Positions 1,624-27,024 of a stretch of DNA of 64,000 nucleotides are shown one piece after another (the stretch's first letter is position 1; each line of letters opens with the position of its first letter). The notes beneath the pieces were generated by a model. It was not told the DNA's origin and ran no database searches. It worked only from the letters and a program-made list of their open reading frames with translations. The translations under genes and the position numbers were made by a program. This DNA is from Serpentinicella alkaliphila (lineage in GTDB: Bacteria > Bacillota > Clostridia > Peptostreptococcales > Natronincolaceae), in contig NZ_CP058648.1 in NCBI RefSeq assembly GCF_018141405.1, positions 2,568,502 to 2,632,501 of the forward strand, written 5' to 3'.

Positions 1624-2265
1624 TTGATAAAAAAACTAACTATACTATTTTTAATTCTTATCACTATTGTATCATTATTTACTGGATGTGTTTTTGAAAA
1701 AAGACAGGATAACAAAATTGAATATGAGCTAAATGAAGATGGAATCATTAAGCCAGAATTTGCAGAGCAAATAATTCAAGATTCATCACTTGAAGTGATT
1801 ACTGCCTTAAAAAACAGTGATTTTGAAAAATTGTCTACATTTGTTCATCCTACTAAGGGAGTGAGGTTTACACCATATACTCATGTGTCAATAGATAATG
1901 ATGTTGTGTTAACTAAGGATGAAATAAATGAGTTATCAAATGACCAAAGTGAGCTTATGTGGGGATACTATGATGGCATCGGTACGGAAATATTATTAAG
2001 TCCTAAGGAATATTACGAAAAATTCGTTTACAGTGCTGATTTTGCTAATGCTGATGAAATTGGATATAATACAGTTCTTAGTTTCGGTAACGTTTTAGAA
2101 AATCAATTTCAAGTATACGAAACCCCTATAATTGTTGAATATTATTTTCCCGGCTTCGATCCTCAATATGCGGGCATGGATTGGGAAAGCTTAAGACTAG
2201 TATTTGAGGAATCTGAGGGAAAATGGCTACTTGTAGGAATAATTCATAATCAATGGACAATATAA
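1624..2265 (+). CDS. Putative lipoprotein, unknown function
   Basis: The protein has 213 aa. It has a Lys-rich start, a hydrophobic signal of ~15 residues and a lipobox ending in FTGC, giving lipidation at Cys22. The remaining acidic region should lie outside the membrane. It contains Trp/Tyr-rich segments and ends with 'EGKWLLVGIIHNQWTI', a pattern often seen in NTF2-like or DUF4829-type secreted lipoproteins. The start codon is TTG, chosen because AGGAGG lies just before it. A rho-independent terminator follows directly. Confidence 0.65.
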   Translation: MIKKLTILFLILITIVSLFTGCVFEKRQDNKIEYELNEDGIIKPEFAEQIIQDSSLEVITALKNSDFEKLSTFVHPTKGVRFTPYTHVSIDNDVVLTKDEINELSNDQSELMWGYYDGIGTEILLSPKEYYEKFVYSADFANADEIGYNTVLSFGNVLENQFQVYETPIIVEYYFPGFDPQYAGMDWESLRLVFEESEGKWLLVGIIHNQWTI

Positions 2266-2278
2266 ATCATAATATAAT

Positions 2279-2308
2279 GAGGGGTTGCAAAATCCCTCCT
2301 TATTTTTT
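2279..2308 (+). terminator. Rho-independent terminator after lipoprotein gene
   Basis: Stem GAGGG/CCCTC with a 10-nt loop is followed by TTATTTTTT. It sits 14 nt after the lipoprotein stop. Confidence 0.7.
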
Positions 2309-2449
2309 GATACAAAGTGATTTTAAGGAGGTAAAAACAGTTTAGAAAAATAGCATTAAATAGTATTTAAACACAATAAAAAGCATTTTATTCATCTTTA
2401 AATATGCTATTATTAGATATAAGGAGATGATTTTATTTCTGATAAAATA

Positions 2450-3063
2450 ATGACTCAGAAAGAAGCTTGTGAATATTTAAATGTTTCAAGAACCACAATT
2501 CTTAGGTGGGAAGATGAGGGTGTTTTCAGCCCTATTAGAACAGCTGGAAAACATAGAAGATATAAAATAGAAGACTTGGATAGGATGTTAAATAAGAAAT
2601 ACACACATCATACGCTTAAGAATTGCTTAATATATGCTAGAGTTTCAACAAAAAAACAGCAAGAATCAGGAAATCTAGACAGGCAAATAAACAGGTTGAT
2701 GGAGTATGCAGTATTAAATAAATACCACATATCAAAGAAGTAGCTAGTGGAATTAATGAAAACAGGAAAGAATTAATAAAGTTACTTGAAGATATTAAAA
2801 GCTCAGAAATTAATTATTTAATAATAGAGTATAAAGAAAGACTTGCGAGATTTGGTTATAGATATATAGAAGAATATTGCAAATCTCACAATGTCGAGGT
2901 GATTGTTCTAGAGAGTCAAGAAGAAAAAGGTTTAAACAAAGAAATGGTCGAAGATATGATTTCAATAATTACTTCTTTTTCAGCTAGAATTTATGGCAAA
3001 CGAGGTGGCAAGAAAGTCAAAGAAACTTTATTTAGATTAGAAAAAGAAGGTGAAGGCAATTAA
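2450..3063 (+). pseudogene. tnpA: IS607 TnpA serine recombinase, frameshifted
   Basis: The first part (2450-2743) has a MerR-type helix-turn-helix (YLNVSRTTILRWEDEG) followed by the resolvase start 'LIYARVSTKKQQESGN', whose Ser is the catalytic nucleophile. The frame then hits TAG. A second frame continues with 'KEVASGINENRKEL...' through the rest of the recombinase and ends at TAA 3061-3063, overlapping tnpB. A frameshift near 2710-2740 therefore breaks the gene. An ATT at 2435 after AAGGAG is an alternative start. The element is probably unable to transpose on its own. Confidence 0.85.
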
Positions 3064-4507
3064 GACTACCGTTAAGGGCGTATTGATTAATATTTCTAAC
3101 GAATATCTAGACGAAATAAGTGAATTAATGACTGTTTTTTCATCAGCTAAAAGATTCGCATTTAAGAGACTTAATGAAGGAAAGATTAAGAAAGGTGAGC
3201 TCGAAAAATTAATAGCTCATAAGTATGGGATAAATATTCGCCAAAGCAAAGATGCTGCTCAGGCCGCAAGGCAGATGATTGCTTCACAAAAATCATTGAT
3301 TAAGGATTATTATGAAAACTATGCTAGAAAAGTTAAAGCTATAGAAAAACAATTGGAAAAAGCTAAGTCACAGAAAAAAACTCATGCTCTAACTAAAAAA
3401 CTTGAAAAAAGAAAAAAGAAGCAAGAGTTTTATAAAAACCATATAGATAATGACACTATACCTAAAATCATCTTTGGTGGGAGAAATAATTTCATTAGAA
3501 GATGCAAAGGACTAATTTCCAATGAAGAATGGAAAAGCTTAAGAGATAATAACTACTATTCAAGAGGAGATAAAACTAAAAAAGGAAATCCGAATTTAAG
3601 AATAGTTATTACAAACAACATGGCCTTTTTAGAAATATCTACCTTAGAGAAAAATGAAAATAACAAAGCTGTAAAAATAAGAGTGCCTCTATATTTACCT
3701 CAAAAGCTTTCCAAAAAAACAGGTAAAATCAATGGTAGAAACTATAGGCAAATAATTTCAGATTACCTACTAACTGGTGAAGCCTATCAAGTAGAGTTAA
3801 TAAAAAAGGATGACAAAATTTACTGCCACATAACTATAGATGAAAGCAAAATTAGAGAATATAAAGAAGAGTTTAACCTCTTTAACGGGGTTATTGGAGT
3901 GGACACGAATCCAGATGGATTGGCTTTAACGAGGCTTGATAAAGATGGCAACTATAAGTGGTCGGTGTATCTGAAGGAATCAGAATTATTGTATGCACGA
4001 ACTGATAGAAGAGAAAATCTTTGCGGTGAACTAATAAGAAATGTGGTGAATATAGCTAAGTCCGAACAATGTGCTATAGCGTTTGAAGATTTAAAATTCA
4101 AAAACGATAAAGATGTGAAATCTAAATTTGCTAGAACTAAGCACCAGTTTATTTATGGCAAGCTGTTATCAATGCTAGATACTAGAGCTATAAGAGAAAA
4201 TATTCAGCGCTTTAAAGTGAAGCCGCAGTTCACTAGTAAAATAGGTCTTTATAAGTATTGTCATCAGTATGGGCTAGATGTTCATAATGGAGCTGCTTTA
4301 GTTATAGCTCGTAGGGCATTTGGATTTAATGAAAAAATTCCTAAAGTATTAAAAACTAAGTTATTAGAAAAAAGTGAATTAGAGAAATTCAATAAACAGG
4401 TTAACTGGAAAAAGTGGTCAATAATAAACCAAAGAATTAAAAAGAAAGGTGGTGAATATCCTAGTTTGTGGCTAAAGCACAGGAAATTATTGCTTAATAT
4501 ATCATGA
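3050..4507 (+). CDS. tnpB: TnpB, RuvC-type RNA-guided nuclease of IS607 element
   Basis: The product has 485 aa and an intact frame. TnpB proteins use a transposon-end RNA to guide DNA cleavage and are related to Cas12. The three RuvC blocks keep their acidic residues: Asp285 in IGVDTNPDG, Glu346 in CAIAFEDLKF, and Asp410 in YGLDVHNGAAL. The region between blocks II and III, which usually holds a CxxC...CxxC zinc ribbon, is short here ('FTSKIGLYKYCHQYG') and has no second Cys pair. This resembles a zinc-ribbon-less TnpB subgroup. The N-terminal half is Lys-rich and helical. The GTG start overlaps the end of tnpA. Confidence 0.85.
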   Translation: MKAIKTTVKGVLINISNEYLDEISELMTVFSSAKRFAFKRLNEGKIKKGELEKLIAHKYGINIRQSKDAAQAARQMIASQKSLIKDYYENYARKVKAIEKQLEKAKSQKKTHALTKKLEKRKKKQEFYKNHIDNDTIPKIIFGGRNNFIRRCKGLISNEEWKSLRDNNYYSRGDKTKKGNPNLRIVITNNMAFLEISTLEKNENNKAVKIRVPLYLPQKLSKKTGKINGRNYRQIISDYLLTGEAYQVELIKKDDKIYCHITIDESKIREYKEEFNLFNGVIGVDTNPDGLALTRLDKDGNYKWSVYLKESELLYARTDRRENLCGELIRNVVNIAKSEQCAIAFEDLKFKNDKDVKSKFARTKHQFIYGKLLSMLDTRAIRENIQRFKVKPQFTSKIGLYKYCHQYGLDVHNGAALVIARRAFGFNEKIPKVLKTKLLEKSELEKFNKQVNWKKWSIINQRIKKKGGEYPSLWLKHRKLLLNIS

Positions 4508-4793
4508 TACATTGATATTTTAAATATATAAAAGCTAATATCTTGCTAAAGGACACCTAGAAGGAAAAGCCTTTAGCAGCAGTAGATATAAAATTAGGGA
4601 GAGGCAACACTTCTAGTTCTGTTGTACTTAATTACTACATGTAATTAAGGCTTACTGTAAGTATGCGGAGCTTGTAGTCAAGTGACTGCACCTTAGTAGC
4701 TGAATCCTGTGATGCTACCGCTTTTTTAAAAAAGTGAAAAACTACAATAAATAGTAGTTTATGATACTGTTTAGTGCAGTTTTAGAAACCAGG
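4508..4793 (+). ncRNA. Candidate TnpB guide RNA (reRNA/omega-RNA) region
   Basis: After the tnpB stop, ~285 nt remain before the inferred right end. This stretch is less AT-rich and more structured than its neighbours. It contains, for example, CTTACTGTAAG, a TAATTACTACATGTAATTA palindrome and paired TAGTAGC/GCTACC segments. In IS200/IS605 and IS607 elements the guide RNA is encoded over the 3' end of tnpB and the right end, and its guide runs into flanking DNA. By position the guide here would be read from about 4794 on. No ORF is present. Confidence 0.5.
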
Positions 4794-4800
4794 TTTTAAT

Positions 4801-5409
4801 ATGCCATTATCGGTAATTTCGCTACTTATTATATTAGCTTTAATTTTAATACCATTATTTTTTGGGATTAAAAAATTTAATACTAACAGAAAAATATCTA
4901 TTGTTCTACTTTTAATTCCTTTAATAATATTTGGAGTTATATATAACTTCATATATAACTTGATGTACATTACTTCTCCGGAGGCATTAGACCTTGAATT
5001 AATTCAAAAGAATCAAGAGTATTTAGTCAATGGAAGATGGATTAAAAAATTTGAACGATATAGTTATGGCAAGGATTTTATTGCTATACACTTGCCAGAG
5101 GGTACAATTATAAGTAGCTCGAGTTTAAAGAACTTCGAGATAATAAAAGAAGAGGATACATATTTATCAGAGGATCTAAATGCTGTAATTAAGAAAAATC
5201 CGAACTATGATTCTTCAAAGAATATAACATTATTTATGATTGACCTGTCAAGAGAATTTCAGTTTACATTTGAGCTGAACAATTTTTTATCTAAAAATGA
5301 TGTTACTATTCAGTATGTACACGTTTATTATCCACCGATGGACTTTTTACGTTACTGGGTTAAAACAATTAATGGTGTATACGAGGATCCTAAGGAAATG
5401 AATAGGTAG
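4801..5409 (+). CDS. Membrane-anchored hypothetical protein
   Basis: The product has 202 aa. The first ~65 residues form two hydrophobic helices separated by 'KKFNTNRKIS'; the remaining ~135 residues are soluble and mixed. I do not recognise the family. The start is ATG at 4801, but its present upstream sequence has only a weak CAGG. A strong AAGGAGG would be restored if the IS607 element were removed, so translation is probably lowered by the insertion. A membrane metalloprotease gene follows 39 nt later. Confidence 0.65.
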   Translation: MPLSVISLLIILALILIPLFFGIKKFNTNRKISIVLLLIPLIIFGVIYNFIYNLMYITSPEALDLELIQKNQEYLVNGRWIKKFERYSYGKDFIAIHLPEGTIISSSSLKNFEIIKEEDTYLSEDLNAVIKKNPNYDSSKNITLFMIDLSREFQFTFELNNFLSKNDVTIQYVHVYYPPMDFLRYWVKTINGVYEDPKEMNR

Positions 5410-26699: not shown

Positions 26700-27024
26700 T
26701 TAAAGAACATTATTTTCAATAGCAAAATTAACTATATTTCTGCTTACTTTATGATCTTGGTCTTTCATCCAGCGTTGTTCTTTATCGTCAAGTTTTTTTA
26801 TTGCTTTTATTTTTTTAGCTCTACCTAAGTTTTTGCGTTTGGATCTGTGCTTTCTTTTAACATACTTGTTTTGTCTGCCATTACCAAAGAATTTTGTTTT
26901 ACCTGAATCAATTACAGCTACAGCGGGAACTTTTAACCCCTAAATCAACACCCATAACTGACTCACCAGTAGATGCACATTTAGGCATACTAACACTTAT
27001 TTGAGCAATCCATTTACTATGTTT
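26700..27024 (-). pseudogene. TnpB (IS605 OrfB) remnant
   Basis: On the minus strand the sequence reads 'WIAQISVSMPKC...', then 'VMGVDLGVK' (RuvC-I with Asp). After a 1-nt frameshift it continues 'VPAVAVIDSGKTKFFGNG', then a basic 'KRKHRSKRKNLGRAKK' helix and 'KVSRNIVNFAIENNVL'. It is an internal piece of a classical TnpB; both ends are missing. It differs from the TnpB at 3050, so it is from another element. Confidence 0.75.

What the first reader, a model, noticed from the sequence alone, without database searches (positions are those of the whole stretch)
3050..4793. Zinc-ribbon-less TnpB with a structured right end, left behind by a dead TnpA
TnpB keeps D285, E346 and D410, but the CxxC...CxxC ribbon between RuvC blocks is absent. 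TnpA is frameshifted. An intact nuclease plus a candidate guide RNA in a non-mobile element raises the chance of domestication or continued selection, for example as a guard of the insertion.
Basis: partly seen in the sequence, partly recalled or inferred. Interest (0 to 1): 0.6.

Follow-up and report, generated by a model that had tools for sequence, protein, structure and literature searches.

The report
Ribbon-less TnpB element in ribosome-binding site
A stranded IS607-type mobile element still carries an intact RNA-guided TnpB nuclease gene and its guide RNA; its wider family has swapped a catalytic aspartate for histidine and inserts itself into the ribosome-binding sites of bacterial genes, a targeting habit I did not find described.

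Summary
Window 2332-4793 is an IS607-type element: pseudogene tnpA (10-bp deletion, lost start codon), intact 485-aa tnpB without zinc ribbon, and a right end that is a bona fide omegaRNA (31 of 56 base pairs with changes on both sides). The RuvC position is H412. In the ribbon-less family it is always His (44) or Asp (28 of 72 rows), split by one branch on the tree. His is used at this site by Thermus RuvC and by SpCas9 (H983), so the enzyme is probably slow rather than dead. Ribbon loss is a family trait. TnpA-less copies are the rule in close relatives, and tnpB stays under purifying selection (omega 0.11-0.28). Locus-specific domestication has no support. The unexpected result is targeting. 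In 27 of 32 family insertions the right end lies 4-13 nt before a start codon (null 11%, p about 4e-21), and an empty site in two sister genomes shows crossover at the last GG of an intact Shine-Dalgarno GAGGAGG. The predicted empty site here is AAGGAGG-7 nt-ATG of the 202-aa gene. The omegaRNA guide therefore covers a host translation start. New variant of a known kind.

The parts
2325..2331 (+). Left flank: Shine-Dalgarno sequence AAGGAGG of the interrupted host gene; GG 2330-2331 is the crossover dinucleotide and the probable TAM region
   Evidence: Left-junction comparison over 17 insertions; the empty site in two sister genomes of a related insertion shows that GGAGG belongs to the flank
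2332..4793 (+). IS607-type insertion element, 2462 bp
   Evidence: Left end conserved with relatives and with a genomic paralogue; right end ...TTTTAGAAA[CT]CAGG, after which all flanks diverge
2435..3063 (+). tnpA pseudogene (MerR-type HTH plus serine recombinase): start codon lost at 2435-2437, 10-bp deletion between 2733 and 2734
   Evidence: NF033518 matched in two frames, profile positions 1-91 and 92-186; alignment to paralogue L062
3050..4507 (+). tnpB, 485 aa, ribbon-less TnpB-related protein; RuvC residues D285, E346, H412
4283..4285 (+). Codon of H412, in the position of the third RuvC catalytic residue
   Evidence: Always H or D in 72 family rows; end points of structural alignments to T. 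thermophilus and E. coli RuvC
4536..4793 (+). omegaRNA scaffold (right end): 8 helices including a CCU/AGG pseudoknot that closes at the last three bases of the element
4794..4813 (+). Predicted guide TTTTAATATGCCATTATCGG (spacer plus start codon of the host gene); no second site in the genome within 3 mismatches
   Evidence: Position after the right end
4801..5409 (+). Interrupted host gene: 202-aa predicted membrane protein, no Pfam match; its native Shine-Dalgarno is 2.46 kb upstream, replaced by the element's terminal CAGG

Best explanation
This is a stranded IS607-type element. Its serine transposase once inserted it at the last GG of the Shine-Dalgarno sequence of the gene at 4801 (shown by anatomy and by a relative's empty site). 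tnpA later died, by start-codon loss and a 10-bp deletion (shown). tnpB and the right-end omegaRNA remain intact and have been under purifying selection in the family, including in tnpA-less copies (shown). Inferred function: read-through of tnpB beyond 4793 makes an omegaRNA whose guide is the first ~20 nt after the Shine-Dalgarno sequence. TnpB with this guide cuts chromosomes that carry the empty site (TAM about GGAGG followed by the guide match), so the insertion is restored by recombination. The occupied site is spared because its TAM position reads CCAGG. The RuvC site is D-E-H instead of D-E-D. By analogy with Thermus RuvC this should still bind the metal but cleave more slowly. Persistence here is most simply selfish retention, not host domestication.
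For: omegaRNA covariation. Position 412 is H or D and nothing else in 72 rows, with D285 and E346 essentially invariant and a single H/D split on the tree. The RuvC fold matches T. thermophilus RuvC, Z 14.5, rmsd 3.0 over 134 residues, model 279-426 to chain 1-157, which places D285 on D7 and H412 on H143; E. coli RuvC end points place H412 on D138. H143 is the natural third residue in Deinococcus-Thermus RuvC and H143D raises activity (PMC3834835). dN/dS 0.106 to the nearest relative and 0.12-0.28 elsewhere. Copies that share a tnpA-less left part lie at different sites (L016/L018, L013/L015) with omega 0.13-0.16. Start codon 4-13 nt after the right end in 27/32 insertions, null 11.4%, and 12/16 in other subclades. 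Empty site GAGGAGG|TACTATAAGTG in G833 and G902.
Against: No RNA, cleavage or TAM was measured. The His could also mean a nickase or a nuclease-dead binder. Only the H-for-D alignment, the fold match and conservation argue for activity. The H412 mapping on RuvC rests on alignment end points; residue pairs were not printed, and the profile comparison with ribbon-bearing TnpBs stops at the ribbon. An intact tnpB in this one copy is weak evidence of selection after tnpA died, because the divergence is small. No empty allele of this very locus was found.
Confidence: 0.65

Rival explanations
1. Nuclease-dead, RNA-guided DNA binder (TldR-like): the Asp-to-His change abolished cutting and the clade survives as a repressor or binder aimed at translation starts.
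For: The third acidic residue is lost throughout the clade; guides overlap start codons; TldRs are TnpB relatives with inactivated RuvC (PMC13418256).
Against: Position 412 is invariant His, and D285 and E346 are kept across very divergent members, whereas a dead site should drift. Members are multi-copy IS607 elements rather than fixed host loci. At an occupied site the TAM position becomes CCAGG, so the own host gene should not be bound. RuvC enzymes with His here are active (PMC3834835). No second target lies in the genome.
Confidence: 0.12
2. Plain decay: a dead insertion sequence in which tnpB has simply not broken yet, with no present function in this genome.
For: tnpA has two lesions and the paralogue L062 is truncated with several stops; the nearest relative L010 has a stop in tnpB; there is no sign of vertical conservation of this insertion.
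Against: The full-length frame and every omegaRNA helix are intact in the window copy, and the family shows purifying selection in tnpA-less copies. This cannot be excluded for the single copy.
Confidence: 0.18
3. Host domestication of this TnpB, for example as a regulator of the 202-aa gene or as a defence nuclease.
For: Intact nuclease-like gene in a non-mobile element, sitting directly upstream of a host gene whose start region is the guide.
Against: No shared insertion in relatives, no second target in the genome, and the same architecture in many mobile copies at unrelated genes.
Confidence: 0.05

Closest known systems
NCBI 'IS200/IS605 family accessory protein TnpB-related protein' (TIGR01765 / TIGR01766), e.g. 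Thermus plasmid pVV8 (L040)
   Same: Same ribbon-less family, RuvC layout and TS-x-IG-xx-KY motif
   Different: Those members keep Asp in the third RuvC position (SKD[EV]AAAYVI[AG]RR); the window clade has His. The window protein is below the curated cut-offs (26 bits against 32; 24.5 against 47.25)
ISFba1-type IS607 TnpB with RAGATH-18 reRNA (PMC11061315)
   Same: IS607 element, right-end guide RNA with pseudoknots, TAM AGGAG or GAGGG, which resembles the GGAGG target here
   Different: 387 aa, D-E-D site (D194, E290, D371); no RAGATH-18 or other Rfam match in the window; terms for Shine-Dalgarno or start codon do not occur in that paper
IS607 / ISXfa1 elements (PMC6188088, PMC10711439)
   Same: Serine recombinase TnpA, GG crossover, no target duplication, reRNA from the right end
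   Different: Described targets are (G)GG with no further relation between sites; here most targets are Shine-Dalgarno sequences
Thermus thermophilus RuvC resolvase
   Same: RNase H-like fold and a D-E-H arrangement in the active site (H143)
   Different: Has a further Asp (D146, from my own knowledge) where TnpB here has A415; not RNA-guided
TldR (nuclease-dead TnpB repressors)
   Same: TnpB lineage with an altered RuvC triad; guide from the flank
   Different: TldRs are tied to host or phage genes after loss of RuvC function; here the substitution is one fixed residue and the element is a transposon

Membership tests
IS607-family transposon | TnpA = MerR-type HTH followed by serine recombinase domain | tested here: met
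   NF033518 and Pfam HTH/Resolvase matches, split by the deletion
IS607-family transposon | GG at both junctions, no target duplication | tested here: met
   Left ...GG and right ...CAGG junctions; empty site of a related copy
TnpB / OMEGA nuclease | RuvC D and E of motifs I and II | tested here: met
   D285, E346
TnpB / OMEGA nuclease | Third RuvC Asp (RD motif of Bao and Jurka, PMC3627910) | tested here: not met
   H412 in its place
TnpB / OMEGA nuclease | C4 zinc ribbon (OrfB_Zn_ribbon) before motif III | tested here: not met
   No CxxC in the interval in any family row; no Pfam match at E<=1
TnpB / OMEGA nuclease | omegaRNA from the element's right end with the guide outside | tested here: met
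   Covarying structure ending at the boundary; transcription itself could not be tested
TnpB / OMEGA nuclease | RNA-guided DNA cleavage | not testable with these tools
   Needs biochemistry
TnpB-related subfamily TIGR01765/TIGR01766 | Score above the curated cut-off | tested here: not met
   Window protein below both cut-offs, but 12 of 13 aligned relatives match at E<=0.001
TldR | RuvC inactivated and stable association with a non-transposon gene | tested here: not met
   Downstream genes differ at every insertion; His is invariant rather than degenerate
IStron | Group I intron in the element | tested here: not met
   No Rfam match in 2000-5400 at E<=1, none in relatives

The most novel reading that the evidence does not exclude
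A clade of ribbon-less TnpBs with a D-E-H RuvC site forms, with IS607 recombinases, mobile elements that are directed to Shine-Dalgarno sequences. Target site, TAM and ribosome-binding site are one motif, every guide spans a host translation start, and the slowed nuclease retains the insertion and may also control the host gene it sits in front of.
Probability: 0.35. Interest if true: 0.8.

Novelty: new variant of a known kind. Interest (0 to 1): 0.6.

Why it matters
IS607 elements are described as having almost no target specificity (PMC4058570, PMC6188088). A large family that inserts into ribosome-binding sites would change that view and could explain why a published IS607 TnpB has the TAM AGGAG. 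It would also make a simple prediction testable: guides of these elements read start codons. The fixed Asp-to-His change gives a natural series to ask how the third RuvC ligand tunes RNA-guided cutting.

Tried and rejected
Group I intron / IStron at the right end: no Rfam match. Programmed frameshift in tnpA: considered because L012 is also out of frame near the same codon, but the paralogue shows a 10-bp deletion in the window, L012 shifts the other way, and L007, L022 and L038 are in frame. Sequencing error: not expected to give a 10-bp loss together with a lost start codon. Left boundary at the first GG (2327-2328): my first reading, rejected after the empty site. Relatives in phages and plasmids: only below 60% identity, none close. 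Search of solved structures by sequence profile: no TnpB or Cas12; by fold: Cas12f, Cas12k and RuvC. TnpB entries were not among the rows shown, which excludes nothing. An own-genome second target for the guide: none within 3 mismatches. Papers linking IS607 or TnpB insertion to Shine-Dalgarno: none found, but the library is open-access only.

Full report
WHAT IS THERE. The window lies at C1:2568502-2632501 of a single-contig 3.26-Mb genome. The open frame 3050-4507 encodes a 485-aa protein present once in the genome. It matches TnpB models only below their cut-offs (NF040570 40.6 bits against 100; TIGR01766 26 against 32; TIGR01765 24.5 against 47.25) and no Pfam model. Upstream, NF033518 (IS607 transposase) is matched in two frames that together cover positions 1-186 of 187. 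So this is an IS607-type element with a broken tnpA.

HOW TNPA BROKE. A 96%-identical, truncated copy of the left end plus tnpA lies at C1:195 kb (L062). Against it the window lacks 10 bp between 2733 and 2734, and the start codon reads ATT instead of ATG at 2435-2437. The copy L062 itself carries in-frame stops and has no tnpB. Two other intact IS607 TnpAs exist in the genome (C1:1465115, C1:2695100), next to TnpBs of another kind. The element is therefore probably immobile, although help in trans cannot be excluded.

BOUNDARIES AND TARGET. After ...TTTTAGAAA[CT]CAGG (4793 in the window) all right flanks differ. In 27 of 32 distinct right junctions a start codon opening at least 60 codons lies 4-13 nt further on, typically 6-10 nt. 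The same test on GG dinucleotides in the flanks gives 11.4%, binomial p about 4e-21. Insertions from the same or related genomes are not fully independent, so the p-value is only a guide. Downstream products that I recognised by eye from their translations include peroxiredoxin, RNase J, a SpoVT-like regulator, FlgK, release factor 3 and a KorB-like subunit. Other subclades of the family give 12 of 16, p about 7e-9. Left flanks end in GGAGG in 14 of 17 cases and in most of the other subclades.

EMPTY SITE. For the insertion L159 of genome G605, two sister genomes have the uninterrupted sequence AAGGTCGAGGAGG|TACTATAAGTG. The right flank of the insertion begins TACTATAAG, so the crossover used the last GG of an intact Shine-Dalgarno GAGGAGG, and GGAGG belongs to the flank. 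Applied to the window: flank ...TTTTAAGGAGG (to 2331), element 2332-4793, then TTTTAATATG. The predicted empty site is AAGGAGG, 7 nt, ATG of the 202-aa gene at 4801. The element leaves CAGG as a weaker replacement. Published IS607 insertions show a (G)GG preference and no other pattern (PMC6188088; PMC4058570). A different IS607 TnpB group has the TAM AGGAG or GAGGG (PMC11061315), without mention of the Shine-Dalgarno sequence.

OMEGARNA. Fourteen right ends align over their length. RNAalifold gives a consensus with 29 of 57 pairs showing double changes. My structure, with P1 and a CCU/AGG pseudoknot to the very end of the element, has 95.9% of cells paired, 31 of 56 pairs with changes on both sides and covariation score 0.445; slid controls reach at most 49%, 11 pairs and 0.142. 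The alignment of P1 is off by one for the window and L010, so P1 is under-counted. The window sequence alone folds at z -3.73. The pseudoknot pairs hardly vary and are supported by conservation only. No transcript was tested.

PROTEIN. No member of the family has a CxxC between RuvC-II and RuvC-III, including Thermus, Ammonifex, Peptoclostridium and a Klebsiella plasmid record. Ribbon loss is therefore old and not specific to this copy. In 72 rows position 412 is His (44) or Asp (28) and nothing else; 410 is S, T, D, V, E, A, N or I; 285 is D and 346 is E (one D). On a 59-row tree built without columns 409-414 the two states need one change (long branches among viral contigs make deep nodes unsure). 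The predicted RuvC domain (model mean pLDDT 75) matches T. thermophilus RuvC, Z 14.5, rmsd 3.0, 134 aligned, 16% identity, model 279-426 with chain 1-157, and E. coli RuvC, Z 13.5, model 279-428 with chain 1-154. Counting from the ends puts D285 on D7 and H412 on H143 / D138. Residue pairs were not printed, so this mapping is an inference supported by the ungapped family alignment. In RuvC the third residue is Asp in most species and His in Deinococcus-Thermus, and H143D is more active (PMC3834835). H983 of SpCas9 sits at the same site (PMC8112549). A slow but active D-E-H nuclease is the simplest reading.

SELECTION. tnpB dN/dS is 0.106 to L010 (dS 0.88) and 0.12-0.28 among others. Close relatives mostly have intact tnpB with deleted or broken tnpA. 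Copies L016/L018 and L013/L015 share a tnpA-less left part but sit at different sites, so tnpB-only elements moved and tnpB stayed constrained. This fits selection for retention of the element. For the window copy itself the evidence is only that nothing is broken; plain decay cannot be excluded. L010 shows the next stage, with a stop in tnpB.

VERDICT. The features worth following are the His-for-Asp clade and the Shine-Dalgarno targeting.

Noticed in passing
window 26706-26939 (-): Fragment matching the TnpB model NF040570 (profile 203-290, 79 codons open): another TnpB remnant in the same window.
   Followed up: no
L062 (genome C1:192500-197600), 3227-2637: Truncated paralogue of the element, left end plus tnpA only, 96% identical, with in-frame stops, also preceded by AGGAGG.
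   Followed up: yes
L065 1123-2703 (-): A second, unrelated 526-aa TnpB of the same genome ends in ADVNGAANI but has lost the ribbon cysteines as well; L064 holds an intact IS607 TnpA next to a tnpB with several stops.
   Followed up: no
L012 3366-4044: tnpA of the Tepidibacter element is also shifted in frame near the same codon as in the window, in the opposite direction; probably coincidence.
   Followed up: partly
L145-L150 (genome G010) and L151-L158 (G240): Six and eight right-end copies, mostly at contig ends, in two fragmented genomes, nearly all just before start codons: the element is multi-copy there and probably breaks the assemblies.
   Followed up: partly
L039 1553-2932: In Ammonifex degensii plasmid pADEG01 an annotated IscB gene lies directly upstream of the ribbon-less TnpB.
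   Followed up: no
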